NCBI GenBank assembly: GCA_945861275.1
Contig: CAMATZ010000008.1
Location: 1-64,000, forward strand
Source: Bordetella parapertussis
GTDB taxonomy: Bacteria > Pseudomonadota > Gammaproteobacteria > Burkholderiales > SG8-41
Direction: 5' to 3'
DNA: 64,000 nucleotides
Of the stretch, positions 12,144 to 26,609 are shown in pieces. Both the position numbers and the translations under genes were made by a program. The notes beneath the pieces are model-generated. The model saw only the letters and a list, made by a program, of their open reading frames with translations. It was not told the DNA's origin and searched no databases. The stretch's first letter is position 1. Every line of letters begins with the position of its first letter.

Positions 12144-12219
12144 GGGCGGTTAGCTCAGCTGGTAGAGCAGCGGACTTTTAATCCGTTGGTCGCGAGTTCG
12201 AATCTCGCACCGCCTACCA
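12144..12219 (+). tRNA. tRNA-Lys (anticodon TTT)
   Basis: 76 bases including encoded CCA. Acceptor GGGCGGT pairs with ACCGCCT (one G-U), the D arm is GCTCAGCTGGTAGAGC, the anticodon loop CTTTTAA reads lysine codons, and the T arm is GCGAG-TTCGAAT-CTCGC. Its 3' part is the integration site of the island that follows; the gene stays complete because the island restores the 3' end. Confidence 0.97.
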
Positions 12220-14337: not shown

Positions 14338-16053
14338 ATGCCTACACTCAACTGGATCGGCAAGGACGCCGTTGTAAAGCATCATAAGGATGTGCCGTAC
14401 CGGCTGCTGGAGCCGGTGGCGGAGCTTTCGTGCGGCGACCCGGCGAGCGGCAACCTGATCGTGCAGGGGGACAATCTGCATGCACTGAAGGCGCTGCTGC
14501 CACGTTACGCTGGCCAGGTGAAGTGTATCTACATCGACCCACCGTACAACACTGGTAACGAAGGATGGGTGTACAACGATAACGTCAATAGCTCGGAAAT
14601 CCGCAAATGGCTAGGCGAGGTGGTGGGTAAGGAAGGTGAAACGCTGGATCGCCATGATCGCTGGCTGTGCATGATGTATCCACGGCTCGTCCTGCTCAAA
14701 CAGTTCCTCCGTGAGGATGGGGCTATCTTTGTCTCGATTGATGACAACGAAGTGGGGAATCTGCAGGCGCTTATGCGGGAAATTTTTGGTTCGTCAAATG
14801 AGGTCGCAACTGTCGTTTGGGAAAAAGGTAAGAAAGGGGATTCCAAACTCGTCTCTGTGACCCACGAATACATCGTGGCGTTCGCGCGTAGTAAGGCGCA
14901 TTTGACGGCTAACAATGTCCGTTGGCGTCGCAAAAAACCAGGTGCGGACGAGGTTCTTGATTACTACAACACGCTGCGACAGAAAAACGGTGATGACCAC
15001 TCCACGATTCGCAAAGAAATGATGAGTTGGTATCGCGGACTTCCAAAGAGTGACCCTCGCAAAGCGCATAAGCACTACAACTGGTCCGATCAACGTGGAT
15101 TGTATTTCGCGGCTGACTTTGCGGGACCGGACGATGGCCGAGAAAACCGTCCTCGCTACCCAATTTACCATCCAATCACTCTTGAACCATGCGCCATTCC
15201 TTCGACGGGTTGGAGGTGGGAAGAAGACACAACAAAGGATGCGCTGGCTGAAGATCCGCCACGTATTCATTTCGGAAAGGATCACAAGACTATACCAAAC
15301 CGAAAAAGTTACCTTTTTGAGATTGACGAAGAACCCATGCAGAGCGTGTTCTATAAAGATGGACGCGCAGCAACGCTTGAAGTCGAGGCGATTCTTGGCT
15401 CAGGGGAGTTTCCGTTTCCCAAAGACTCGGAGGTAATCGCTGACCTTATTAGCATGGTCGCTGGCCCGGGAGATATCGTGTTGGACAGTTTTGGGGGTTC
15501 CGGAACCACCGCTCACGCCGTCCTAAAGCGCAACCAGCACTCAAAGATCCCGCTACATTTCATTCTGGTAGAGCTTGATGACAATGTCGCCCAGCGCAAA
15601 ACGCGAGAACGCGTGCGAAAAGCTATCGAGGGTTACACCCCATTGGCGGGGAAAAAGCGCGACAGAGTAGCCGGGCTCCCCGGTGGCTTTCAGTTCTGCA
15701 AACTCTCCGACGAGCCGCTGTTCACAGCGACGGGTCAGATTCGCCCGGATGTGAGCTTTTCTCAGATCGCGGAATTTGTTTGGTTCGCCGAGACCGGCAC
15801 GGGCTACCCGGGAAAAGCCAATTCGCCGCTGCTCGGCAAGCATGAAGGCCGCGCGATTTATTTGCTCTATAACGGCATACTCAAGGATCGCACGACCGGC
15901 GGTGGCAACGTGCTGACGGGGCCGGTATATGACAGCCTGTCGCGACATGATGGCCCCAAGGTGATTTATGCCGCCGCGTGCCGTCTCGGCGCCTCCCGGC
16001 TTATGCGCGAGGGCGTCGTGTTCAAGCAAACGCCATACGCACTGGAGGTTTGA
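14338..16053 (+). CDS. mod: Type III restriction-modification methyltransferase (Mod)
   Basis: N6-adenine DNA methyltransferase that also gives the type III complex its sequence specificity. 571 residues. Catalytic motif IV DPPY is at 67-70 and the AdoMet motif FGGSGTTAHAV at about 385, the IV-TRD-I order of beta-class enzymes; the roughly 300 residues between contain the target-recognition region. It lies three bases before res. There is no obvious simple repeat in the gene, so phase variation by slippage is not suggested. Confidence 0.93.
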   Translation: MPTLNWIGKDAVVKHHKDVPYRLLEPVAELSCGDPASGNLIVQGDNLHALKALLPRYAGQVKCIYIDPPYNTGNEGWVYNDNVNSSEIRKWLGEVVGKEGETLDRHDRWLCMMYPRLVLLKQFLREDGAIFVSIDDNEVGNLQALMREIFGSSNEVATVVWEKGKKGDSKLVSVTHEYIVAFARSKAHLTANNVRWRRKKPGADEVLDYYNTLRQKNGDDHSTIRKEMMSWYRGLPKSDPRKAHKHYNWSDQRGLYFAADFAGPDDGRENRPRYPIYHPITLEPCAIPSTGWRWEEDTTKDALAEDPPRIHFGKDHKTIPNRKSYLFEIDEEPMQSVFYKDGRAATLEVEAILGSGEFPFPKDSEVIADLISMVAGPGDIVLDSFGGSGTTAHAVLKRNQHSKIPLHFILVELDDNVAQRKTRERVRKAIEGYTPLAGKKRDRVAGLPGGFQFCKLSDEPLFTATGQIRPDVSFSQIAEFVWFAETGTGYPGKANSPLLGKHEGRAIYLLYNGILKDRTTGGGNVLTGPVYDSLSRHDGPKVIYAAACRLGASRLMREGVVFKQTPYALEV

Positions 16054-16056
16054 CCC

Positions 16057-18732
16057 ATGACAACCTTTCAGCCCAAAAACTACCAGGCGCAAGTGCTGGA
16101 AAGCATCGAGTCCTATTTCCGTGCGTGCCACGAGTTTCCGAGCCCAAGCGTTGCATACAACGCCGTCACTGAACGTCTGTGGGGCAAAGGGCTGGCTTAT
16201 AGTCCGATCGCAGGCTTTCCATCCGATATGCCGTATTTCTGCTTACGCGTGCCAACGGGCGGCGGCAAAACATGGCTCGCGGCGAAGAGCGTGCTCCTCA
16301 TCAATACGCATTTGCTGCGCAGCGAGCACAGCGTAGTTCTGTGGCTGGTGCCGTCCAAGGCAATCCGCGAGCAAACCATCAAGGCGCTCAAGGATCGCAA
16401 CCATCCGTATCACGCCGCGCTCAGAGACGCAGGGCCGGTCACAGTGCTCGATCTGGACGAGGCCAAAAACGTAACGCGCGCCACGTTGGAAACTTCGACT
16501 ACGGTAATCGTCTCTACCCGGCAGGCATTTCAGGTCGAGGATGCGGAAATCCGCAAAGTGTACGAATCCAACGGCGCGCTGATGCACCACTTTGAGCATC
16601 TTACTCACGACCAGCGCGCTGAGTTGCTGACGGATGGCGACACCACGCCGTATTCGCTTGCCAACGTGCTGCGGCTGCGCCGGCCGTTCCTCATTGTGGA
16701 TGAAGCGCACAACAGCCGTACCGAGCTCAGTTTCGACACGCTCGCGCGCTTCCGGCCGAGCGGCATCATGGAACTGACGGCGACGCCGGATATGGTCAAG
16801 ACGCCGAGCAACGTGCTGCACAGCGTTTCCGCCGCTGAGTTGAAGGGCGAGGAAATGATCAAGCTGCCGATCGTGCTGGAAACCGAACCCAATTGGCAGC
16901 AATGTTTGGCAGATGCGATTGCGCGGCGCGGCGAATTGCAGATGCTGGCGGAACAAGAGCGGCACAAGGGAGCGGCTTATTTGCGCCCCGTAATACTGAT
17001 ACAAGCGGAGAAACGCCGGCAAGGCGTGGAGACACTGGACGTGGAGCGGGTACATAAAGAGTTGACCGACAACCACCGGGTGCCGTCAGAGGAAATCGTG
17101 ATCGCCACGGGTGAGGAACGCGGTTTGGAGAAAATCGACTCCGATTACGCACACGGCATCGCCGACGAAGCGTGCCCGGTGAAATTCGTGATCACGCAAC
17201 AGGCGCTGGCCGAAGGCTGGGATTGCCCCTTCGCCTATATTCTCGTGAGTATGGCGACGCTGCATTCAGCCACGTCGGTGGAGCAACTACTGGGCCGAGT
17301 GCTGCGTCAGCCGGACGCGCGGCATCGCGCGGCGCGCGTGCTCAATCAGTCCTATGCGTTCGTGGTATCGCGAGATTTCGGTGAAACAGCGCGCAGCCTG
17401 CGTGATCGGCTGGTTGAGGCCGCGGGCTTCGAGCGCCGCGAGGTCGCTGAGTTTGTCGTGGCGGCCAAATCGGAGCAGATGCCACTGGACATCGAAGGGC
17501 AGGCCGGGCGCATCGTGATTCACCCGGTAATTGTGTCGTTGCAGGAAAAACCCAACCTGCGCAGCATACCCAAGGACCTTCGTGACAAACTGGTGTGGGA
17601 CGACAAGGCAAAAACGCTGACGATCTCGCAGCCGCTGAAGCCGGAGGAAGAGGAAACCGTCAAGCAAGCGGTGAAAAGCGAGCCCGCAAAACAAGCTATT
17701 CAGCAGGCTGCCGAAGCAAGCCGCACTAAAGCTGTCGAGTTCTTTCAAACACCGGCGGAAAAAGGTTTGCGCTTTGCGGTGCCTCAAATTGCATTGTTTG
17801 TGCAGGGCGTGCTTGCGTTGTTCGATGATCCCGAAGTCCTGGACTATCCGTGGGATCTATCAATGTACAACGCGACACCTGATGCGAATCAGTTGTCGAT
17901 TCTGGATGGCGCGCTCAAGGTGTCCGAAGGAGGGGAAATCGATATCGATGGCGAGACAGGAAAAGTCACGACACGATTCATTGCCAATCTGCAGCGCGAT
18001 CTGGGGCTCGCGTACCGGCCTGAACATTGGGATGAAGTTAAGCTCGCAGCGTGGTTGTGCCGCAATCTGCCTGAACCTTCGGTAACGCATGCCAAGAAAC
18101 AGGCATTTATCGCAAAGTGGACAAAAGAACTACTTGAGCGGCCAGGGTATGACCTCGGCCGCCTGAACCAACAAAAGTTTCTCGCACGTAATCTGCTCGA
18201 ACGAAAAATTCGGGAATTGCGTTTGGCTGCGGTCAAACAGGCGTATCAGGAAACTTTGTTCGGGGATGACCGCGAATTGCGGGTGAAGGTAGACGATACG
18301 TACCGCTTCGAGTTTCATCCGCAGGCTTACGCGCCGAGCAGGGATTACGATCATCGCTTCGGTCATTTCACATTCCGAAAACATTATTACAGCCGCATCG
18401 GCGACTTCGACAGCAAGGAGGAATTTGAATGCGCCGTTTGGCTGGACATGCAGGCACAAAAAGGACGCATCGATTTCTGGGTACGCAATCTGGTGCGCAA
18501 GGAAGGATGCTCATTTTTCCTGCAAAAAGCGGACGGACGTTTTTACCCGGACTTTCTCTGCCAGTTATCGGGCGGCGTTAATCTGGCGGTTGAATACAAA
18601 GGTGCAAACCAGTGGGCTGCCACGGTGGATGACCGCGTGATTGGTGGATTGTGGGAGGAACTCTCCGGTGGTCGCTGTCGTTTTGTGATGACGACAGAAA
18701 AGGATTGGTCACGGATCGACGCGAAATTGTGA
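16057..18732 (+). CDS. res: Type III restriction endonuclease subunit (Res)
   Basis: Helicase-nuclease subunit that, with Mod, translocates or diffuses on DNA and cuts unmethylated sites. 891 residues. Walker A PTGGGKT is at 66-72, DEAH at 215-218, and the helicase C-terminal motif VEQLLGRVLRQPDARH follows near 410. The nuclease domain at the C-terminus carries the PD-(D/E)xK triad Asp832, Glu846 and Lys848 (FYPDF...AVEYK). All key residues are intact, so the system looks active. Confidence 0.93.
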   Translation: MTTFQPKNYQAQVLESIESYFRACHEFPSPSVAYNAVTERLWGKGLAYSPIAGFPSDMPYFCLRVPTGGGKTWLAAKSVLLINTHLLRSEHSVVLWLVPSKAIREQTIKALKDRNHPYHAALRDAGPVTVLDLDEAKNVTRATLETSTTVIVSTRQAFQVEDAEIRKVYESNGALMHHFEHLTHDQRAELLTDGDTTPYSLANVLRLRRPFLIVDEAHNSRTELSFDTLARFRPSGIMELTATPDMVKTPSNVLHSVSAAELKGEEMIKLPIVLETEPNWQQCLADAIARRGELQMLAEQERHKGAAYLRPVILIQAEKRRQGVETLDVERVHKELTDNHRVPSEEIVIATGEERGLEKIDSDYAHGIADEACPVKFVITQQALAEGWDCPFAYILVSMATLHSATSVEQLLGRVLRQPDARHRAARVLNQSYAFVVSRDFGETARSLRDRLVEAAGFERREVAEFVVAAKSEQMPLDIEGQAGRIVIHPVIVSLQEKPNLRSIPKDLRDKLVWDDKAKTLTISQPLKPEEEETVKQAVKSEPAKQAIQQAAEASRTKAVEFFQTPAEKGLRFAVPQIALFVQGVLALFDDPEVLDYPWDLSMYNATPDANQLSILDGALKVSEGGEIDIDGETGKVTTRFIANLQRDLGLAYRPEHWDEVKLAAWLCRNLPEPSVTHAKKQAFIAKWTKELLERPGYDLGRLNQQKFLARNLLERKIRELRLAAVKQAYQETLFGDDRELRVKVDDTYRFEFHPQAYAPSRDYDHRFGHFTFRKHYYSRIGDFDSKEEFECAVWLDMQAQKGRIDFWVRNLVRKEGCSFFLQKADGRFYPDFLCQLSGGVNLAVEYKGANQWAATVDDRVIGGLWEELSGGRCRFVMTTEKDWSRIDAKL

Positions 18733-18898
18733 GGGGTCGCAGCGAGCCTCTAGACGCGCTTGCCGATACAGCCGCGTTAACCTGGTTGAGTTTGATGGAC
18801 ACGAGTTGTCGCGCTTCGAAGACGGCGTTGACGCGAGTGAGGTTTAGAAGCCAGCCACTGAGCAAAGGCCTCAGCGCAGTCACCTTGCTACCGCGAAG

Positions 18899-19396
18899 TT
18901 ACTTGCGGAAAGATTCCAGTTGTTTATCCACTTCATTCCAGGGAAGTCGCCGGCCCGCATCACGCATTGCGCGGTAAGCCCGGCGGGCGGCGGCAAGTCC
19001 GATAACTTTCTGCTCCATCATTTGCCCTACCAGCCAAAGCGTCCCATGAACATCCACTTCCTTGTCTTCACAAACCCGTCGAAGGCGCGAATCGCCCGTT
19101 AGCAGGGGACACGTTTCCTGACTGGCAAGCGCCAAGGCGATCAAGTCATTGCGACTAACGCCGGCCTGCTCGTATTCAACGGCAAGCTCCGCTGCATACT
19201 CCACCGCTTTTTCTTTGAGTTCCAGGGACTTCAAACCGAAACGGGGTAATTCCGGATACTGTGCTTTGAGTTCTTCTTCAAATAGGATATCAGGCACGGC
19301 GAAATCGTAGTCGAGCGCGAACATCGCTTTGAGCAGCCCGCCCGCGTCCATATCAATCAGGACATTGGCATCACTTACCAGTAGCTGTCCGGGCAT
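18899..19396 (-). CDS. PIN-domain protein, probable partner of the XRE-ImmA protein
   Basis: 165 residues. LLVSDANVLIDMD at the N-terminus has the first PIN aspartate (Asp9); other acidic candidates are Glu41/42, Asp84 and Asp102 (LLTGDSRLRRVCE). PIN domains are metal-dependent RNases and often toxins. The start ATG 19396 lies inside the end of the upstream gene (26-base overlap), so the two are co-translated. HTH-ImmA/IrrE proteins are commonly followed by PIN-like DUF4411-type proteins in this way, often annotated as toxin-antitoxin pairs. Confidence 0.8.
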   Translation of the reverse strand: MPGQLLVSDANVLIDMDAGGLLKAMFALDYDFAVPDILFEEELKAQYPELPRFGLKSLELKEKAVEYAAELAVEYEQAGVSRNDLIALALASQETCPLLTGDSRLRRVCEDKEVDVHGTLWLVGQMMEQKVIGLAAARRAYRAMRDAGRRLPWNEVDKQLESFRK

Positions 19397-20438
19397 GGTC
19401 CATGTTCCGCATGGCGTGGAACTTGATCAACGGGAGGCGCAGTAGCTCGGCCGCTTTCGATTCGCTGATGAGATCCTCGGCAAGCGCGTGGAATACTAAT
19501 TGCTCGAACAATTGTGGCTGCTCAGCCGGAAACGGTTCGCCCGGTTCTTTTTTGTGCCAACCGCGGGCGCGGAAGAACTTGACCATAGTGAGGTAGTGCG
19601 CATCCGTGAGAATTCCAAGGTCGTTCGCTCGATGCATCCAGCCACCCATGCTCAACCCATAAGCTTTCTTCAGGACAGCAAGTTCGTTGGGCTCAAGCCA
19701 CGTACGGCGCTCACCGAGTTCCTTGCGAACTTCGGATTCGGGTACGAGAAACGCGCCGGCAAAGCGATTTGCTGCCTTTTCTTCGTCAAGGTCTGCCGCG
19801 AGTCGCCCCTTAAGAATCAAATGTCCCAACTCGTGGGCGAGCGTAAAGCGCTGCCGGTCACCCGGCCAGCCGCTACCCACCACGATTACGGGAATGCCAT
19901 TGACCATCGCCGCCATGCCGTCGAAAGTATCGCCATGGAGGGCCTGAGACTGGAAAACTTTGACGCCACGCTCTTCGAGCATGTCCGTCAGCACGGGTAT
20001 CGGATCGACTCCCAAGTCCCAAGCGTGCCGCAACTTGGCTGCGACCTGTTCGATCTCCGCATAACTTGAAATCTTGGCCGGTAGATCTTCAGGCAACTTG
20101 AATGCTTGCAGCGGCCCCTTGGGAAAATAACGCTCTAATTCAAGGAAGCGTTCGATTTGCTCTAAGACATCGCCCTCGATCTGCTGCAGCACTTTCGCGG
20201 GAAGCTTGGAATGTTTGCGGTATTCAACCTCTTGCAGTTCGACTTTGAGTGGCCGAAAAAAGTACTCCGTACGCACACCTAGTGCCTTGGCCAGCGACAA
20301 CAGAACGCCGGAAGAAGGTGTTGATTTACCGGTTTCATACTTTGATATCGCCATTGCAGTTATGCCGACTTTTACGGCCAGTGCGCGTAATGACAGCCCG
20401 GCCGCTTTCCGTGCTTGATTAATTCGCGCTCCTATCAT
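19371..20438 (-). CDS. XRE-type HTH regulator with ImmA/IrrE metallopeptidase domain
   Basis: 355 residues. The HTH_3 domain is at 4-60 (LSLRALAVKVGITAMAISKYETGKSTPSSG) and the ImmA/IrrE peptidase domain at about 140-250, with the zinc motif HELGH at 202-206 and Glu219/220 downstream. Such proteins either repress mobile-element genes or act as antitoxins that are inactivated by proteolysis or stress. The start lies 12 bases before a perfect inverted repeat that covers the divergent promoter of the TIR gene row, implying autoregulation and control of that row. Confidence 0.88.
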   Translation of the reverse strand: MIGARINQARKAAGLSLRALAVKVGITAMAISKYETGKSTPSSGVLLSLAKALGVRTEYFFRPLKVELQEVEYRKHSKLPAKVLQQIEGDVLEQIERFLELERYFPKGPLQAFKLPEDLPAKISSYAEIEQVAAKLRHAWDLGVDPIPVLTDMLEERGVKVFQSQALHGDTFDGMAAMVNGIPVIVVGSGWPGDRQRFTLAHELGHLILKGRLAADLDEEKAANRFAGAFLVPESEVRKELGERRTWLEPNELAVLKKAYGLSMGGWMHRANDLGILTDAHYLTMVKFFRARGWHKKEPGEPFPAEQPQLFEQLVFHALAEDLISESKAAELLRLPLIKFHAMRNMDHARTATGK

Positions 20439-20449
20439 GGTTTCTCCTG

Positions 20450-20491
20450 TAGTTTACAAACTTGACAAATTATTGCTAATTTTGTAAACTA
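20450..20491 (+). promoter_or_regulatory. Operator and promoter between XRE-ImmA and the TIR gene row
   Basis: Perfect 11-bp inverted repeat TAGTTTACAAA (20450-20460) and TTTGTAAACTA (20481-20491). Between and across the arms is a strong plus-strand promoter: -35 TTGACA (20462-20467), 17-base spacer, -10 TAAACT (20485-20490). The right arm covers the -10 box and the left arm abuts the -35 box, as expected for an HTH repressor site. Confidence 0.8.
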
Positions 20492-20555
20492 TACCCAATG
20501 GAAAGTTCAATGTCAACGCTTTCCTTAATTGTTTCAACTATTTAGGAGAAATTTT

Positions 20556-20729
20556 ATGGCAAAAAACCCTCCCTATGGCGACCACCACCGTGTTGGCGCT
20601 GTGCGCGAACGCTCCCAAACGTTCAATCCGCACACCCAGCAATGGGTAAAGCGGGATACCGAAACAGGTCGTTTTCTGGATCAGAAGGCCGATCCGAAAC
20701 CGTTCAAGGGTGTGACCAAGGAGAAATAA
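20556..20729 (+). CDS. Small basic protein of unknown function
   Basis: 57 residues from ATG 20556 with a good TAGGAGA ribosome site 8 bases upstream. The protein is hydrophilic and rich in Lys, Arg, Pro and Thr, with a central RERSQTFNP and KRDTETGRFLDQK. I recall similar small proteins in other mobile regions but cannot name a family. It is the first gene behind the operator-controlled promoter, one base from the next gene. Confidence 0.7.
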   Translation: MAKNPPYGDHHRVGAVRERSQTFNPHTQQWVKRDTETGRFLDQKADPKPFKGVTKEK

Positions 20730-20730
20730 T

Positions 20731-20889
20731 ATGAATGCAAAGGCACAGGCCGTCGCGGCCTCGCTCGCAATTGGCGGCTTCATTGCCTACAAAGAATATC
20801 AAACTGGTCAGACCAGTTTGAAGCCATTTGTCGGCGCCGGACTGGCCGCGTGGGCAACCAAAATTGCGGCCGCCGTGGCGAGTTCGTGA
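20731..20889 (+). CDS. Small hydrophobic protein
   Basis: 52 residues from ATG 20731, with AAGGAG before the start. Two short Ala/Gly-rich hydrophobic stretches (about 6-20 and 34-50) flank a polar loop, so it may insert into the membrane. It lies one base after the preceding small gene and is immediately followed by the ThsB-like gene (TGA then ATG), which argues for co-translation. No family recognised. Confidence 0.65.
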   Translation: MNAKAQAVAASLAIGGFIAYKEYQTGQTSLKPFVGAGLAAWATKIAAAVASS

Positions 20890-21489
20890 ATGCCGCGCTG
20901 CACAGCCAAGACCACGACCGGACGGCGTTGCTTTAACCGGGTGCCATCTGAGCGAGAGTTTTGCTCTAAGCATAGGGATCAAATATCGCCAGGCACGGTA
21001 ATCGCGACTATCGCCGGCGCGGCCATCGGGAATATAGTGGTGCCAGGCTTGGGAGGCGTGTTGCTTGGTGGGGCAGCCGGCAAACTTATCCGAGATTTTT
21101 CGCGTGAGAATATTATGGAGAGAAAACGAGTATTTGTGAGTTTTGACTTCGACAACGATCGCGCGTTGAAGGACTTTATTGTTGGTCAGGCCCGCCATGA
21201 GGACTCGCCGTTCGACGTTATCGACCACTCCCTGAAAGAGGCAGCGCCGGAAAGTAACTGGCAGAGCAAGGCACGCAATGCCATTAAGAAATCGGACATC
21301 GTGTTGGTTATGGTCGGACGCTACACCTATCGTGCACCCGGCGTCCTGCAGGAGATAAAGATGGCTCGGGAGGAAGGAATTCCAATCGTACAAATCATTG
21401 GATATAGAGATGGCCAATATACGCCGGTACCAAACGCAGGGCGCCTCTTTGCTTGGAACTGGGATAACCTTAAGAAGCTGTTGAGTTGA
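20890..21489 (+). CDS. ThsB-like TIR protein with zinc knuckle and membrane anchor
   Basis: 199 residues. Residues 4-28 form a Cys4/Cys14/Cys25/His28 knuckle (CTAKT...RRC...FCSKH). Residues 35-66 are a Gly/Ala/Val-rich hydrophobic segment able to span or enter the membrane. Residues 78-199 match the TIR-like ThsB fold: KRVFVSFDFDNDR, then SDIVLVMVGRYTYRAPGVLQEIKMA with Glu155 as the candidate catalytic residue, and IPIVQIIGYRDG. In Thoeris defence, ThsB senses infection and makes a cyclic ADP-ribose signal from NAD. The knuckle plus anchor is an unusual addition. Confidence 0.8.
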   Translation: MPRCTAKTTTGRRCFNRVPSEREFCSKHRDQISPGTVIATIAGAAIGNIVVPGLGGVLLGGAAGKLIRDFSRENIMERKRVFVSFDFDNDRALKDFIVGQARHEDSPFDVIDHSLKEAAPESNWQSKARNAIKKSDIVLVMVGRYTYRAPGVLQEIKMAREEGIPIVQIIGYRDGQYTPVPNAGRLFAWNWDNLKKLLS

Positions 21490-21580
21490 GCGATACACGA
21501 AAGGAGGAGCGCGTCGTGAACCGATTTTTGTTACCGGCGGAGTGCTCCCTATTTCCATTTAGATTCTTGATCCTTTTCCC

Positions 21581-22723
21581 ATGACAATTTACCAGCTAGG
21601 AATTTTGGGGTCCCCACCACCAGGGACCGTGGCGACGCTTACTGGTACGCTATCAAGTATCGTTTCGAATTTTGGACTGTCGATCCCTGCCGATGTGTCC
21701 GTTGATCAGGGGGCCAATTTTTCGCCGGACCCTAAACTGGCATCTGCGGCCCTCTACTTCGGTGGGGTCGGCGTTAATGATCCTACGATTCCTGCCATTA
21801 TTGCGACTGGCATACCCGTAGTACCCGTTGTTTCTGACCTGATATCCTTTTCAGCCGAAATCCCATTGGCCTTGCGCCATATCAATGGGCTGTCATTCTC
21901 GGGAGACGATGCACGATTCACCAAAATTGCTTCTGTCCTCCTAGAATGTGTAGGGCTTTTGCCGCGTCAACGTCGAGTGTTTTTGAGTTACCGTAGAACG
22001 GAATCTCGCGAGGTTGCGCTGCAACTATTCGAGGCATTTGCGGCGCGTCAATTTGACGTCTTTCTCGATACGCATGGAGTTCCCCCCGCAGAAGATTTCC
22101 AGGCGATTCTCTGGCATCGTCTTTGCGACTCGGATGTGGTCGTCATGCTTGATACGCCGGGCTACTTCAATAGCCGCTGGACTGACGCTGAGTTCGGCCG
22201 CGCATTGGCAAAATCGATAACAGTTCTGCGAGTGGGTTGGCCCAGCCACGTCGCGTCGCCCCGTCTCGCGATGCAGCCATCCATCGATTTGGCCGCAAGC
22301 GATTTCGATGCGCGTGGTCGTCTGGCTTCTTCTCGAGTCGACCAGGTTTGTACCTCGCTGGAACTTTACCGTAGCAAAAGTATAGCCATTCGTCACTCAG
22401 AAATCGTTGGGACGCTTCGCGTCGCGATGCAGAAGCTCGGCGGCGTTATCGACGGAGTGGGTCAGCGTAGATCGACGTTTCTGACGCTGGCCGACGGAAC
22501 TAAGGTTGTCGCGTATCCCATCGTAGGAGTGCCAACGGCCCAGACGATCTACGAAGCGGAAATGGAAGGTCACAAAGGTTCCGTTGCGATTGTATACGAC
22601 CATGTCGGCCTCCACGAAAATTGGCAAAGACACCTGACATGGCTTGCTAACTATGTTCAGCCGGTTCGCTTCGTCCGGACAAGTGAGGCTGCATGGGTAT
22701 TTGGCGCTTGGGGGGTCAGGTAG
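21581..22723 (+). CDS. TIR-domain protein with extra N- and C-terminal domains
   Basis: 380 residues. A canonical TIR domain occupies about 131-255: RRVFLSYRRTESREVALQLFEAF, FDVFLDTHGVPPAEDFQ, SDVVVMLDTPGYFNSRWTDAEFGRAL; Glu204 is the expected NADase glutamate. The N-terminal 125 residues form a separate alpha/beta region (ALYFGGVGVNDPTIPAI) and the C-terminal 110 another (VVAYPIVGVPTAQTIYEAE), neither of which I can name. The stop codon is directly followed by the start of the SLOG gene, so the two proteins are probably made together. Confidence 0.82.
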   Translation: MTIYQLGILGSPPPGTVATLTGTLSSIVSNFGLSIPADVSVDQGANFSPDPKLASAALYFGGVGVNDPTIPAIIATGIPVVPVVSDLISFSAEIPLALRHINGLSFSGDDARFTKIASVLLECVGLLPRQRRVFLSYRRTESREVALQLFEAFAARQFDVFLDTHGVPPAEDFQAILWHRLCDSDVVVMLDTPGYFNSRWTDAEFGRALAKSITVLRVGWPSHVASPRLAMQPSIDLAASDFDARGRLASSRVDQVCTSLELYRSKSIAIRHSEIVGTLRVAMQKLGGVIDGVGQRRSTFLTLADGTKVVAYPIVGVPTAQTIYEAEMEGHKGSVAIVYDHVGLHENWQRHLTWLANYVQPVRFVRTSEAAWVFGAWGVR

Positions 22724-23326
22724 ATGAGAGCCATCTTTCTTTCCGCGAGCGTACCCGTCATTGGACGAGGAGATTTCTACAAGACCGCCGATGTCATGCT
22801 AATCCAGGCTGCCGTGCGAGCGTTCGTCATAGTTGCCCTTGGACGGAAGCTGATAGTTTGGGGCGGACATCCAGCAGTCACGCCAATGATATGGGCAACC
22901 GCTAAGGATCTTGGTGTGTCATATTCCGACTGGGTACATCTGTTTCAAAGTAAATTTTTTAACGAGTTTTTTCCTGACGAGAACAAGCTCTTCAAAAATG
23001 TTACTTATATCGATGCTGTTGACAACGATAGGGGTAGCAGCTTAACCAAAATGCGGGTCGAAATGCTCAAGAGCTACCAATTTGACGCCGCGGTTTTCGT
23101 CGGTGGCATGGAGGGAATCTTTGAAGAACTGGCGCTGTTTCAGAAGTTCCATCCGAATGCCACTCTTATTCCCGTCGGCTCAACAGGCGGTGCTGCCTTG
23201 GAACTCGCGCAGAAGCTACGAGGCTCGGTAAGTTCATCTCACCAGGCTATTGACTACATAGGGCTGTTTCATGCCGAACTGAAGATTGCCCCCGATGAAC
23301 CTCGCGGAGCCGCCACCGGTGCTTAA
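22724..23326 (+). CDS. SLOG-domain (LOG-like Rossmann) protein
   Basis: 200 residues. The start 'MRAIFLSASVP', the WGGH motif at 46-49, the glycine loop VGGMEGIFEE at 126-135 and GSTGGAA at 152-158 match the SLOG superfamily, whose members bind nucleotide-derived ligands; in Thoeris ThsA a SLOG domain binds the TIR-made signal and activates the effector. Here SLOG is a free-standing protein without SIR2 or other effector domain. The start is immediately after the TIR gene stop. Role as signal receptor is an inference from the family and neighbourhood. Confidence 0.78.
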   Translation: MRAIFLSASVPVIGRGDFYKTADVMLIQAAVRAFVIVALGRKLIVWGGHPAVTPMIWATAKDLGVSYSDWVHLFQSKFFNEFFPDENKLFKNVTYIDAVDNDRGSSLTKMRVEMLKSYQFDAAVFVGGMEGIFEELALFQKFHPNATLIPVGSTGGAALELAQKLRGSVSSSHQAIDYIGLFHAELKIAPDEPRGAATGA

Positions 23327-23379
23327 TTAAGTTTGCGCCACTCGATTTCAATAACCATCGATAGAAGGGGGTAGGCAAC

Positions 23380-23865
23380 ATGGCACGCAAGTCATTTTTT
23401 AGTTTTCATTACAAGCCGGACAATTGGCGCGCCGGACAAGTTAGGAACATGGGAATAGTAGAGGGCAACCAACCAACTAGTGACAATGATTGGGAATCGG
23501 TCACCAAGGGGGGCGATCAGGCGATAAAGGATTGGATTGCCAGGCAGCTCAATGGGCGTACATGCAGCATCGTGCTAATCGGCCAGAATACCGCAAATCG
23601 TAAGTGGATTACTCATGAGATTGTTGAATCCTGGAATGCCAAAATGGGTGTATTTGGAATATATATCCACTATCTAAAGGACAGCGATGAAAAACAGGCT
23701 TCAAAAGGGGGCAATCCGTTTGACTATGTCGATGTAGGCGACAAAAAACTATCGTCGATGGTTCAAACATACGATCCTCCGTACTCCACCAGTACTGACG
23801 TATACGCTCACATAAAGAAAAATCTATCCACGTGGGTTGAAAAAGCAGTTCAGGACAGGGGATAG
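23380..23865 (+). CDS. ThsB-like TIR-domain protein
   Basis: 161 residues, nearly all one domain of the PF08937-type ThsB/MTH538 fold: KSFFSFHYKPDNWRAGQVRNMG, SIVLIGQNTANRKWITHEIVESW (Glu80 as candidate catalytic residue) and GVFGIYIHYLKD. It lacks the knuckle and membrane segment of the first ThsB-like protein in this row. It follows the SLOG gene by 53 bases, with GGGGG-type purines before ATG 23380. Multiple ThsB paralogues beside one receptor are known in Thoeris, each tuned to different phages. Confidence 0.85.
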   Translation: MARKSFFSFHYKPDNWRAGQVRNMGIVEGNQPTSDNDWESVTKGGDQAIKDWIARQLNGRTCSIVLIGQNTANRKWITHEIVESWNAKMGVFGIYIHYLKDSDEKQASKGGNPFDYVDVGDKKLSSMVQTYDPPYSTSTDVYAHIKKNLSTWVEKAVQDRG

Positions 23866-23988
23866 GTGCGCATGCAGCAATGGCGAACCAGGAAACGCGC
23901 ATCACCGGGCTTTTTGATCAAGGAAGACTAGGTATCAGAAAGTAAGCTGACTGGATTGTGAGTTGTCCCATTCTGCGGGAGCACAGTG

Positions 23989-25434
23989 ATGCCTAAAAAT
24001 ATCTTGATCTTCTCAGACGGTACAGGCCAGGCGGGCGGTCTAAAACCGGATCAGCAACTCAGCAACATCTACAAACTTTATAGGGCGGCGCGGACGGGGC
24101 CAGACAGTGAAATAGACCCAGCGCAGCAGATTGCCTTCTACGATGCGGGCTTGGGGACCGCGAAAGACGAGGGAACCGTACCAATTCGCGCACTACAATT
24201 CATTAGAAAGTTTATAAGTGCTTCAATCGGATTTGGGATCAGCAGAAATATTGCTGACTGTTATGAAGCTATCTTGAAATATTACGAACCTGGTGACCGG
24301 ATTTTTCTATTCGGCTTTAGTCGGGGAGCTTACACCGCACGATGCGTCGGTGGGGTACTCCATCTTTGCGGAGTCCCTTTGAAACTGGCGGATGGTCAGT
24401 CAATTCCCAGATACGGTAAGGCGCTTAGAGCGATCGCAGATGAAGCTGTTAGCAAGGTGTATGAACACGGTGCCGGTAGGGATCGTGACAAATTCGCACC
24501 AGAGCGGGATGAACAGGCGCGACGCTTTCGACAAAAGTATAGTTGTGAAATTGACGGACAATCGAATGTTGTGCCTCATTTTATGGGCGTTTTCGATACC
24601 GTCGCCGCGCTGGGCGCATCTGGCGCGAAAAGATTCGGCATGAATTTCATCATTATTAGCTTTGCATTGCTTCTATCGTGGGTTACCGCGCGCATCCTTA
24701 CAGTATTCAATATTAGTTTCTGGGTTGGCTTCTGGATCGTACTTATTGGGGGCAGTCTCGCCTTCTGGATTCCACTTCTAAGATCCAGCTTCAAAATTAT
24801 TTCCAATTACCCAGGGCCGGGCCAGTTTCGATGGCATTTTGCTGGATGGCGATCCGGTTTCTACGATAAGACCTTGGACAACCGAGTTCGTTACGCACGC
24901 CATGCTTTAGCAATTGATGAGACAAGAAAGGATTTCGCAAGAGTGCCATGGGGACTAAAAAGCGATCACCCCACTTACGGGCCGGAGGAACCGGAATGGT
25001 TTCAGCAGATTTGGTTTGCCGGCAATCATTCCGACATCGGCGGTAGCTATGCCGAAGAAGACTCCCGGCTGTCGGATATTGCGCTAACGTGGATGCTAGA
25101 CGCAGTTACCGTTATTCCGATGCCTGTGATTGTGGATAGAGCGAAACTTAACCTGTTTCCCGCTCCCGCTGGAATGCAGCACTCCGAAGTGACAGCCTTG
25201 CTAGACAAATATCCCAGCTGGTGGCCCCATGGCCTACGATTCGTATGGAAAGAGCAACCACGTGTTGAGGTTTCCGGAGCTCCACTGCATGAAAGCGTTT
25301 TGGCGCGATTCAAACTACCTGCCGTATTGCACTATGATCGTATGCAGCCTTATCGTCCTGAGACGCTGAGGCACGACCCGCAAGTGGCACATTTTTACGA
25401 GGACATTGACTCATCTGCTGCGGCAGCAGAGTAA
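23989..25434 (+). CDS. DUF2235 alpha/beta hydrolase with two membrane segments
   Basis: 481 residues from ATG 23989; GTG 23986 is an alternative. It begins KNILIFSDGTGQ, the DUF2235 entry motif, and has the nucleophile elbow GFSRGAYTAR (Ser at about 111), VFDTVAALG (Asp about 203) and NHSDIGGSY (about 346-353), as in type VI secretion phospholipases of the Tle1 group. Two membrane helices at about 219-239 and 243-264 interrupt the hydrolase fold. There is no VgrG, PAAR or immunity gene nearby, so a secreted antibacterial role is not supported; a membrane-damaging effector for the TIR/SLOG genes upstream is an inference. Confidence 0.82.
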   Translation: MPKNILIFSDGTGQAGGLKPDQQLSNIYKLYRAARTGPDSEIDPAQQIAFYDAGLGTAKDEGTVPIRALQFIRKFISASIGFGISRNIADCYEAILKYYEPGDRIFLFGFSRGAYTARCVGGVLHLCGVPLKLADGQSIPRYGKALRAIADEAVSKVYEHGAGRDRDKFAPERDEQARRFRQKYSCEIDGQSNVVPHFMGVFDTVAALGASGAKRFGMNFIIISFALLLSWVTARILTVFNISFWVGFWIVLIGGSLAFWIPLLRSSFKIISNYPGPGQFRWHFAGWRSGFYDKTLDNRVRYARHALAIDETRKDFARVPWGLKSDHPTYGPEEPEWFQQIWFAGNHSDIGGSYAEEDSRLSDIALTWMLDAVTVIPMPVIVDRAKLNLFPAPAGMQHSEVTALLDKYPSWWPHGLRFVWKEQPRVEVSGAPLHESVLARFKLPAVLHYDRMQPYRPETLRHDPQVAHFYEDIDSSAAAAE

Positions 25435-25624
25435 ATCCCCGCGTTGCTCGCCAAATTCAATCAGTTACCGATCAATACGATCTCTCGCCAGTGCCCACCT
25501 TTATCCCCTTTGGGATGCCTGCGGCGAGTCGAACCACGAGAATAACGGGTACCTGCTCGAAAATCTGGTTAACTAGAAAAAATCCTGCTTCACCAAGTTA
25601 GGCGGCTTCAAACCGGGTCCAAAC

Positions 25625-26413
25625 ATGAAATTTTCTCTCGTAAACAGACAACGCCAGGAAGCTCAGCCCAATCTTTCAGGCGAGTGTCCTGGCTGCGGAA
25701 AACCGATGGTTGCAAGGTGCGGAGAAGTCCGGGTTTGGCACTGGGCTCACCAAGGGCGTCGTCTTTGCGATCCGTGGTGGGAAAATGAAACGAAGTGGCA
25801 CCGCGCTTGGAAAGACCAGTTTCCCTCAGATTGGCAAGAGATCGTCCACCCTGCCGAAAGCGGTGAACGACACATCGCAGACGTGAAGACCCATGATGGT
25901 TGGGTGATTGAGTTCCAGCACTCCAACATCAAACCTGATGAGCGCAGATCTCGCGAGGCCTTTTACCAAAGTCTGATTTGGGTGGTGGATGGAATGAAGC
26001 GAGAGAGAGATGTAGTTCAATTCTCTCGAGCGTGGGGCTCTGGCGAATCGCGTGATCCGCTTTCGTCCAAGCGGAGAATTTCCCTGCCCAAGGGCGCACT
26101 GCTACGGGATTGGGCAGGAAGCCGCGCGCACGTTTTCTTTGACTTCGGCGACGAGCGCGAGCTTTGGTGGCTTTTCCCCGAGAGCGACGATCGGCGGGCG
26201 TACGTCCAACGCATTTCGCGCGCACAGTTCGTCAGAATCCATCGGGAGAGGTGCACACATGGGCCAAGCGAATTCGATTCGCTTGTGGAGAACTTCCACG
26301 CATTCATCGCGCACTACGAGTCGCCTCCACCCACACCTCGACCTCGGAGGTTGACAGAGATTCCTCCGGACCCGAACCGCAGACCAACAATTCGGAGAAG
26401 TTTTCGGCTTTAG
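25625..26413 (+). CDS. CoiA-like nuclease
   Basis: 262 residues. An N-terminal CPGCGKPMVARCG...HWAH zinc element (Cys21/24, His39/42) is followed by a PD-(D/E)xK-type nuclease core: IADVKT (Asp86) and WVIEFQHS (Glu96, Gln98), then SREAFYQSLIWVVDG. This is the competence CoiA-family pattern. Members occur in competence and also in defence and mobile regions. It stands alone, 190 bases after the DUF2235 gene; that gap shows no clear promoter. The last 30 residues are Pro/Arg-rich. The gene is the last one before the right island border. Confidence 0.8.
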   Translation: MKFSLVNRQRQEAQPNLSGECPGCGKPMVARCGEVRVWHWAHQGRRLCDPWWENETKWHRAWKDQFPSDWQEIVHPAESGERHIADVKTHDGWVIEFQHSNIKPDERRSREAFYQSLIWVVDGMKRERDVVQFSRAWGSGESRDPLSSKRRISLPKGALLRDWAGSRAHVFFDFGDERELWWLFPESDDRRAYVQRISRAQFVRIHRERCTHGPSEFDSLVENFHAFIAHYESPPPTPRPRRLTEIPPDPNRRPTIRRSFRL

Positions 26414-26560
26414 GACACCTCTTAGTCTCGTTGGTCGCTGTGCCGCAATTGTGACGTGACAGGCCCGCGTAAAATTGGTTGTGCCTTGAGTGACATTGAT
26501 TTGTAAATTGGCAAGCATCGCAAGCGATTGATTTAACAACGGTCTCGTTTTACATCTACC

Positions 26561-26609
26561 ACTTTTAATCCGTTGGTCGCGAGTTCGAATCTCGCACCGC
26601 CTACCAGTC
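26561..26609 (+). repeat. attR: second 49-bp copy of the tRNA-Lys 3' end
   Basis: Identical to 12174-12222. It lacks the 5' half of the tRNA and is not a functional gene. It marks the right border of the island; the native downstream sequence resumes after it. The 147 bases before it, after the CoiA-like gene, hold nothing recognisable. Confidence 0.93.

What the first reader, a model, noticed from the sequence alone, without database searches (positions are those of the whole stretch)
20438..20556. XRE-ImmA/IrrE regulator shares an operator with the TIR gene row
A perfect 11-bp inverted repeat brackets a near-consensus promoter for the TIR row (TTGACA-17-TAAACT), and the divergent neighbour is an HTH protein with an intact HELGH peptidase motif. 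This suggests that the row is repressed until the regulator is inactivated, linking defence expression to a proteolytic or stress signal, and may join the PIN protein to the same circuit.
Basis: partly seen in the sequence, partly recalled or inferred. Interest (0 to 1): 0.72.

Follow-up and report, generated by a model that had tools for sequence, protein, structure and literature searches.

The report
Swappable switch for antiphage gene operons
A repressor-protease gene paired with a probable toxin shares one DNA control site with a row of antivirus genes, and the same repressor, toxin and control site recur beside different antivirus gene sets in other microbes, so this looks like a portable on-switch for bacterial immunity.

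Summary
A perfect 11-bp inverted repeat (20450-20460 / 20481-20491) lies between an XRE-ImmA gene and a rightward operon with type III Thoeris genes. Their -10 boxes overlap by 3 bp inside the right arm.

The regulator is RosmerTA-type (RmrA), in effect CapH fused to CapP; a PIN gene follows it in 66 of 72 relatives. Its operator GTTTACA-N21..24-TGTAAAC lies (at most 2 mismatches) upstream of 81 of 83 RmrA genes, in bacteria and archaea. An operator-only scan of 369 genomes gave 11 matches, 9 before an RmrA gene (window included; 4 of the other 8 were already in the defining set).

The link to the TIR row is local, not general: 8 of 8 other type III Thoeris loci inspected lack RmrA. Divergent cargo differs between loci: CBASS, AbiLi, a DRT reverse transcriptase, E1/Bil-like genes, Thoeris; many loci show no defence cargo. 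Best reading: a portable immune-operon controller wired to a toxin, a new variant of the Cap regulators. Binding, repression, toxicity and proteolytic release are inferred.

The parts
20450..20491 (.). operator: 11-bp perfect inverted repeat; conserved half-sites GTTTACA 20452-20458 and TGTAAAC 20483-20489, 24 bp apart
   Evidence: at most 2 mismatches in 81 of 83 RmrA loci; only exact copy in this genome
20462..20490 (+). predicted rightward promoter PR, TTGACA-17-TAAACT; -10 lies in the right half of the operator
   Evidence: -35 of 5/6 or better in 10 of 81 operator loci
20488..20516 (-). predicted leftward promoter PL of the regulator, TTGACA-17-TATAGT; its -10 overlaps PR's -10 by 3 bp
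   Evidence: (11/12, best in region); -35 of 5/6 or better in this geometry in 11 of 81 loci
19371..20438 (-). RmrA-type regulator: XRE HTH fused to M78/ImmA metallopeptidase (CapH-CapP-like fusion), 355 aa
   Evidence: Pfam HTH_3, Peptidase_M78; PADLOC RmrA 1.2e-54, capP 6.6e-15, capH 2.1e-11; AlphaFold pLDDT 91, first Foldseek match CapP 7t5t at E 2e-3
18899..19396 (-). PIN-domain protein, overlaps the regulator gene by 26 bp; probable toxin partner
   Evidence: Pfam PIN and DUF3368; next to RmrA in 66 of 72 loci; acidic residues D9, E41, D84, D102 conserved in 56-60 of 60
20556..20729 (+). S38: 57-aa protein of unknown function (PADLOC PDC-S38), first gene of the divergent operon
   Evidence: PADLOC 4.8e-33; next to RmrA or WYL regulators elsewhere
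20731..20889 (+). 52-aa ORF (sm2), probable N-terminal remnant of a YdjM-like protein
   Evidence: 12.6 bits to a profile of five YdjM-like proteins from other S38 operons
20890..21489 (+). ThsB-like TIR protein with an extra N-terminal segment
   Evidence: Pfam ThsB_TIR 1.8e-8
21581..22723 (+). ThcB4, TIR protein of type III Thoeris
   Evidence: NCBIfam NF058526 431.8 bits, cutoff 220
22724..23326 (+). ThcA, SLOG protein of type III Thoeris
   Evidence: NCBIfam NF058525 236.1 bits, cutoff 110; Pfam LD_cluster3
23380..23865 (+). ThsB-like TIR protein
   Evidence: Pfam ThsB_TIR 4.4e-25, PADLOC ThsB 3.2e-69
23986..25434 (+). Tle1-like phospholipase (DUF2235); operon membership inferred from strand and spacing only
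   Evidence: Pfam T6SS_Tle1-like_cat 6.1e-67; a 43% relative sits in an RmrA-headed CBASS operon, L287
25625..26413 (+). CoiA-like protein; may or may not belong to the operon
   Evidence: Pfam CoiA_N 3.2e-7

Best explanation
A portable immune-operon controller. RmrA (HTH fused to an M78 metallopeptidase) binds the two half-sites as a symmetric dimer or higher oligomer and represses two overlapping promoters: its own (RmrA plus PIN toxin) and that of the divergent operon (S38, then exchangeable defence genes, here type III Thoeris). When infection or DNA damage activates the peptidase, or RmrA is lost, the HTH part leaves the operator. The Thoeris row is then induced and PIN is freed or over-produced. 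Shown by computation: the anatomy, operator conservation with RmrA, the PIN pairing, differing cargo. Inferred: DNA binding, repression, cleavage, the signal, PIN toxicity.
For: Operator at most 2 mismatches in 81 of 83 RmrA loci, 69 perfect, 10-77 bp from the start codon, from Betaproteobacteria to Chloroflexota and methanogens. Operator-only scan: 11 of 369 genomes match, reversed-pattern control 2 of 369; 9 of 11 lie before RmrA. Of the 10 outside the window, 4 were already in the defining set (L145=L021, L152=L022, L151=L079, L153=L078 by sequence), 4 are new with RmrA, 2 are new without. In 12 plasmid loci not used for the motif: 6 perfect, 1 with one mismatch, 3 with the symmetric GTTTATA/TATAAAC change, 1 with perfect half-sites 34 bp apart, 1 without. 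HExxH histidines and E220 invariant in 65 of 65. First Foldseek match CapP 7t5t (E 2e-3, none at 1e-3 or better); CapH N-terminal domain 7t5u at rank 13. Profile search: P22 c2 and ImmR HTH, 9vzy (2.3e-9) and IrrE over the M78 part. Cargo: DNA alignable to L018 around the module ends at 18894 and 20577; for four other relatives it ends at 20517-20725. Divergent defence genes by PADLOC: CD-NTase (L019, L020), AbiLi (L025), RT_UG19 (L124), E1-E2/BilD (L031, L032, L126, L128); SMODS cyclases in L286-L290. Passages: CapW, CapH+CapP, CapK+CapS head diverse immune operons (PMC13373217); CapW palindromes overlap -10 boxes (PMC9122588).
Against: No binding, expression or phage data. 17 of the 29 loci whose right-hand genes were scanned by Pfam gave no hit or only housekeeping or ambiguous hits, so many RmrA-PIN pairs may control only themselves. 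A good PR -35 is found in 10 of 81 operator loci; both PL and PR -35 boxes are good in 6; in 28 of 81, mostly Chloroflexota, the operator fits a differently placed leftward promoter. One of the five plasmid CBASS loci (L289) and L124 (3 mismatches) lack the standard operator. RmrA is far below the NCBIfam cutoff for the spr1629 antitoxin (120 of 335 bits). 8 of 8 other type III Thoeris loci lack the module. The count of promoter-like sites in the region is at chance level.
Confidence: 0.6

Rival explanations
1. Plain toxin-antitoxin autoregulation. The operator only controls RmrA-PIN; the Thoeris row is an accidental neighbour in a defence island and PR is a by-product of an AT-rich palindrome or is not limiting.
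For: Operator conserved in many loci without recognised divergent defence genes (17 of 29 loci scanned). 71 of 81 operator loci have a PR -35 below 5/6. Type I R-M genes follow the RmrA or PIN gene co-directionally in 5 of 12 plasmid loci. The window also has a type III R-M pair next door.
Against: PR is the second-best promoter match in 7.9 kb and the only rightward one before 25309. The 10 loci with a good PR -35 include Thoeris, CBASS and E1/BilD cargo. S38 lies on the far side of the RmrA upstream region in 14 of 84 loci, 13 of them with the operator. The divergent first operon is CBASS in 5 of 12 plasmid loci.
Confidence: 0.26
2. RmrA activates the row rather than repressing it: bound at the left half-site it recruits polymerase to PR, as lambda CI does at PRM.
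For: The left half-site ends 3 bp before the PR -35 box, a position from which some XRE proteins activate (recalled).
Against: The right half-site lies on the PR -10 box, where binding should block polymerase. Related controllers CapW and CapH+CapP are repressors (passages in PMC9122588 and PMC13373217).
Confidence: 0.06
3. The row is controlled mainly by something else (the S38 product, a phage factor, a distant regulator) and RmrA sets only a background level.
For: S38 also sits next to WYL regulators (8 of 8 tested), so induction of such operons may rest on a shared factor. Other type III Thoeris loci do without RmrA.
Against: No second rightward promoter match before 25309. The exact operator occurs once in the genome, as expected of a local controller.
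Confidence: 0.08

Closest known systems
CapH + CapP (CBASS-associated HTH repressor plus M78 metallopeptidase)
   Same: HTH of the CapH type and an M78 peptidase of the CapP type (PADLOC and Foldseek), placed at the promoter of an immune operon.
   Different: Here both are one protein, apparently co-transcribed with a PIN gene; the operator is bipartite with half-sites about three helical turns apart. ssDNA activation untested.
RosmerTA (RmrA antitoxin with various RmrT toxins)
   Same: XRE-ImmA antitoxin plus adjacent toxin gene; PIN-like partners noted in print (PMC10440598, passages).
   Different: A divergent exchangeable immune operon under the same operator was not mentioned in the passages read; toxicity not tested here.
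COG2856-Xre fusion with PIN (Makarova et al. 2009, PMC2701414, passages)
   Same: Same domain fusion and PIN partner, predicted as a three-component stress module with unknown regulatory targets.
   Different: The present data supply a conserved operator and candidate targets.
CapW/BrxR and CapK+CapS controllers of adjacent pathways
   Same: One regulator family heading many different immune operons; CapK+CapS already heads type IV Thoeris in 12 cases (PMC13373217, passages). S38 is shared with WYL-headed operons.
   Different: Unrelated protein families and, for CapK+CapS, phosphorylation instead of proteolysis.
Type III Thoeris (ThcA, ThcB4; NCBIfam)
   Same: Both proteins above their equivalog cutoffs.
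   Different: 8 of 8 other loci inspected have no RmrA, PIN or S38 match nearby.

Membership tests
RosmerTA (RmrA) | XRE HTH fused to ImmA/M78 peptidase domain | tested here: met
   (PADLOC RmrA 1.2e-54)
RosmerTA (RmrA) | adjacent toxin gene in the same operon | tested here: met
   PIN gene overlaps by 26 bp; PIN next in 66 of 72 relatives; that PIN is a toxin is inferred
RosmerTA (RmrA) | toxicity neutralised by the antitoxin; antiphage activity | not testable with these tools
   needs bench work
spr1629/RipB equivalog (NCBIfam NF052239) | score above curated cutoff of 335 bits | tested here: not met
   120.3 bits
CapH + CapP | separate HTH and M78 proteins | tested here: not met
   one 355-aa ORF carries both
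CapH + CapP | CapH-like HTH and CapP-like peptidase folds | tested here: inconclusive
   7t5t rank 1 (prob 1.00) but E 2e-3 and TM 0.30 over the whole model, 7t5u rank 13; capP 6.6e-15, capH 2.1e-11 by PADLOC profiles
CapH + CapP | peptidase activated by ssDNA cleaves the repressor | not testable with these tools
   HExxH histidines and E220 conserved 65 of 65, E203 63 of 65 allows it
Cap-type controllers of adjacent pathways | same regulator heads several unrelated immune operons | tested here: met
   by gene position only:
Autoregulated type II TA operon | operator at the antitoxin's own promoter | tested here: inconclusive
   operator in 81 of 83 loci, PL predicted; binding not tested
Type III Thoeris | ThcA and ThcB4 equivalogs | tested here: met
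   236.1 of 110 and 431.8 of 220 bits
Type III Thoeris | signal synthesis and effector activation | not testable with these tools
   -

The most novel reading that the evidence does not exclude
RmrA-PIN is a distinct family of immune-operon controllers, with one operator kept across bacteria and archaea, that ties a toxin to a swappable defence operon: one event (loss or self-cleavage of RmrA) both frees a PIN nuclease and switches on CBASS, Thoeris, DRT or AbiLi. Back-to-back promoters sharing a -10 region make the two states exclusive in one clade. S38, a 57-aa protein found behind both RmrA and unrelated WYL regulators, is a common early-acting part of such inducible operons.
Probability: 0.33. 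Interest if true: 0.8.

Novelty: new variant of a known kind. Interest (0 to 1): 0.6.

Why it matters
Makarova et al. (2009; passages) predicted that COG2856-Xre-PIN modules form a three-component stress circuit and left the repressor's targets open. A conserved operator of two 7-bp half-sites and a list of adjacent immune operons make that directly testable, and give a DNA pattern that finds such loci (8 of 10 matches outside the window, 4 of 6 among those not seen before). It would add a fused CapH-CapP with a toxin partner to the known immune-operon controllers, and points to S38 as an unstudied shared component.

Tried and rejected
Rejected: that the operator belongs to the TIR row as such (8 of 8 other type III Thoeris loci inspected lack RmrA and S38: 7 of the 29 plasmid records, picked by hand, and the one other genome found; ThcA itself was in 2 of 369 class genomes, the window's included). 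Not supported: a multi-site regulon, since the own genome has one exact operator (degenerate sites were not searched). Led nowhere: the fold of S38 (three short strands, pLDDT 72, no PDB match at E 0.001 or better); Pfam on several cargo proteins (L018 437 aa, L036, L037, L083, L129, L133, L134: no hit). VIA-align 2 filled its list with HTH domains and says little about the peptidase. S38 presence is not clustered on the RmrA tree (12 changes, shuffles 12.8-12.9).

Limits: no background rate for defence genes beside arbitrary XRE regulators was measured. The 29 loci scanned by Pfam (of 84) and the 12 plasmid records inspected (of 47) were chosen by hand, not at random; PADLOC was run on 10 cargo proteins from 10 loci, so the defence count is a lower bound. 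Rows dropped: duplicates removed before the 84-locus list; one locus too short upstream (83); the shuffle control used an earlier 94-row list that held duplicates. L020's S38 is frameshifted but was labelled S38-positive on the tree. In one search one and several of the S38 genome hits are partial or weak.

Papers: only search listings and passages were seen (PMC10440598, PMC13373217, PMC9122588, PMC2701414, PMC12795458, PMC12457610); none was read whole; the paper that I recalled as the CapH+CapP original was not held. 'Type III Thoeris' had 0 occurrences in the 20 papers listed (179 papers held 'Thoeris'); 'PDC-S38' was in no paper; two searches found no paper with all their terms.

Full report
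Observation. The intergenic region 20439-20555 holds a perfect 11-bp inverted repeat, arms 20450-20460 and 20481-20491. The rightward promoter TTGACA-17-TAAACT (20462-20490) is as described. A leftward promoter, TTGACA-17-TATAGT (20516-20488), was missed; both are consensus matches, not mapped starts. They are the best two of 7 sigma-70-like sites in 18700-26600, and no other rightward site occurs before 25309; the number of sites is at chance level (shuffles 6.4 +/- 2.4). Their -10 boxes overlap by 3 bp inside the right arm, so polymerase should be unable to use both at once (inference). The repeat alone arises in 7 of 2000 dinucleotide shuffles of this region.

The proteins. The regulator has HTH_3 and Peptidase_M78 domains; PADLOC calls it RmrA (1.2e-54), with capP and capH as further hits. 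Its AlphaFold model (pLDDT 91) has CapP 7t5t as first Foldseek match, though at E 2e-3, with CapH, ImmR and DdrO HTH domains further down; a profile search finds P22 c2-like HTH domains, 9vzy and IrrE. The HExxH histidines and E220 are invariant in 65 of 65 relatives, E203 in 63. The PIN gene overlaps the regulator gene by 26 bp. The row to the right begins with a 57-aa protein (PADLOC PDC-S38) and a 52-aa ORF, then a TIR protein, ThcB4 and ThcA of type III Thoeris (both above NCBIfam cutoffs), a second ThsB-like protein, a Tle1-like phospholipase and a CoiA-like protein.

The operator belongs to the regulator. RmrA was found at E 1e-30 or better in 16 of 149 relatives' genomes, the own one included. 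Of 84 non-duplicate RmrA loci, 83 had enough upstream sequence: 69 have GTTTACA and TGTAAAC perfect, 78 with at most 1 mismatch, 81 with at most 2, spaced 21-24 bp apart. 0 of 470 mononucleotide shuffles reached 1 mismatch or fewer, 3 reached 2 (an earlier 94-row list with duplicates). Twelve plasmid loci not used for the motif gave 6 perfect, 1 with one mismatch, 3 with a matching change in both half-sites (GTTTATA/TATAAAC; two of the three are Shewanella baltica plasmids), 1 with perfect half-sites but a 34-bp gap, about one helical turn longer, and 1 (L289) with none. In the reverse direction, a scan of 369 class genomes for the operator alone found 11 genomes with a match (reversed-pattern control: 2); 9 lie immediately before an RmrA gene and 2 do not. 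Of the 9, one is the window, 4 are loci that had helped define the motif (same sequence as L021, L022, L078, L079), and 4 are new. The window's genome has one exact copy.

Regulator and PIN form the constant unit; cargo changes. PIN follows RmrA in 66 of 72 loci with enough flank. The closest relative, L018 (RmrA 89% identical), aligns with the window around the module only from 18894 to 20577 (one further 87-bp match lies at 12151); the S38 start codon is lost there, and its right-hand genes are a 437-aa protein without Pfam hit and a HipA. Four further relatives align around the module only as far as 20517-20725. I scanned right-hand proteins of 29 hand-picked loci with Pfam (40 proteins). 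Eight loci have PADLOC-supported defence genes: CD-NTase in L019 and L020 (L020 with patatin), AbiLi in L025, RT_UG19 in L124, E1-E2-like in L031, L032 (weak, 4e-6, but with DUF6791, ThiF and DUF6527 by Pfam) and L126, BilD in L128 (10 proteins from 10 loci, 8 with hits). Four more are suggestive only: HsdR in L048, a SNF2-type helicase in L053, HipA in L018 and L029. The other 17 gave no hit or housekeeping or ambiguous ones. L124's operator is a variant (GTTGACA/CGTCAAC, 3 mismatches). Of 47 plasmid records with RmrA, I inspected 12: 5 have CBASS genes as the divergent operon, with SMODS cyclases confirmed by Pfam; 1 has a Cap17-like nucleosidase and an exonuclease; 5 have type I R-M genes after the RmrA or PIN gene, co-directional; 1 lies beside type I-U CRISPR genes. 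Type III Thoeris is not otherwise tied to RmrA: 0 of 8 other loci, and no other RmrA locus matched the window's TIR, ThcB4 or ThcA proteins.

S38. The 57-aa protein lies across the upstream region from RmrA in 14 of the 84 loci, the window and the frameshifted L020 included; 13 of them have the operator. Elsewhere it sits next to WYL regulators: 8 of 8 non-RmrA regulators tested were WYL by PADLOC, two of them on plasmids. Not every S38 fits: a Phocaeicola plasmid copy follows TIR and SIR2 genes and a Hymenobacter one follows arsenic genes, neither with such a regulator beside it, and L115 showed no regulator. It was found in 13 of 369 class and 6 of 399 order genomes, the own one in both, some hits partial. 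On the RmrA tree its presence needs 12 changes, about as many as shuffled labels, so it seems to be gained and lost freely.

Mechanism, with the steps marked. Shown by computation: anatomy, operator-regulator pairing, PIN pairing, differing cargo. Inferred: RmrA binds the half-sites and represses PL and PR; its peptidase inactivates it on a signal, probably DNA damage or phage DNA, as CapP does for CapH (PMC13373217, passages) and ImmA for ImmR (PMC10440598, passages); release induces Thoeris and frees PIN. CapW operators also overlap -10 boxes (PMC9122588, passages). The main rival is that the operator serves only the RmrA-PIN pair and the row is a passenger; a good PR -35 occurs in just 10 of 81 operator loci, and good PL and PR together in 6.

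Place among known systems. The concept (a regulator family heading many immune operons) is published for CapW/BrxR, CapH+CapP and CapK+CapS, the last also before type IV Thoeris (PMC13373217, passages); the COG2856-Xre-PIN module was predicted in 2009 (PMC2701414, passages), and RmrA with PIN-like partners was noted in 2023 (PMC10440598, passages). In the listings, and the passages read, I did not find a shared operator of the fused protein or its link to CBASS and Thoeris; those papers were not read whole. Hence a new variant of a known kind.

Noticed in passing
20556-20729: S38 (PDC-S38), a strongly conserved 57-aa protein of unknown function, stands next to two unrelated regulator families (RmrA and WYL) and occurs on small Klebsiella and Yersinia ruckeri plasmids.
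   Followed up: partly
20731-20889: 52-aa ORF resembles the N-terminus of YdjM-like proteins that follow S38 in L029, L032, L112, L114, L117; it lacks their later LPD..EP...HHR motif, so it is probably a remnant.
   Followed up: partly
20799-20821: Perfect 10-bp hairpin TCAAACTGGT-CAG-ACCAGTTTGA inside the 52-aa ORF; listed as a leftward terminator-like site.
   Followed up: no
14338-18732: Type III restriction-modification pair (N6_N4_Mtase and ResIII by Pfam), convergent with the PIN gene.
   Followed up: partly
23986-25434: Tle1-like phospholipase has a 43% identical relative in an RmrA-headed CBASS operon of Sulfitobacter indolifex (L287 1968-3404), so it may be effector cargo rather than a secreted effector.
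   Followed up: no
L120 1177-6567: S38 next to a WYL regulator heads four genes that look by eye like a Wadjet/MksBEF-type set; two were tested by PADLOC and only the large one matched, LmuB at 1.1e-7.
   Followed up: partly
L285 5206-5367 and upstream of 5501: Cyanobacterial plasmid with S38, RmrA and operator half-sites 34 bp apart, about one helical turn longer than usual.
   Followed up: partly
L142, L144: S38 followed by proteins resembling DUF6791-ThiF and DUF6527 by eye, as in L032; possible ubiquitin-like defence operons.
   Followed up: no
L106 2302-5174: On a Phocaeicola vulgatus plasmid S38 follows TIR, SIR2 and TIR genes and precedes a retron-type HNH endonuclease gene: S38 beside a Thoeris-like set without RmrA.
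   Followed up: no
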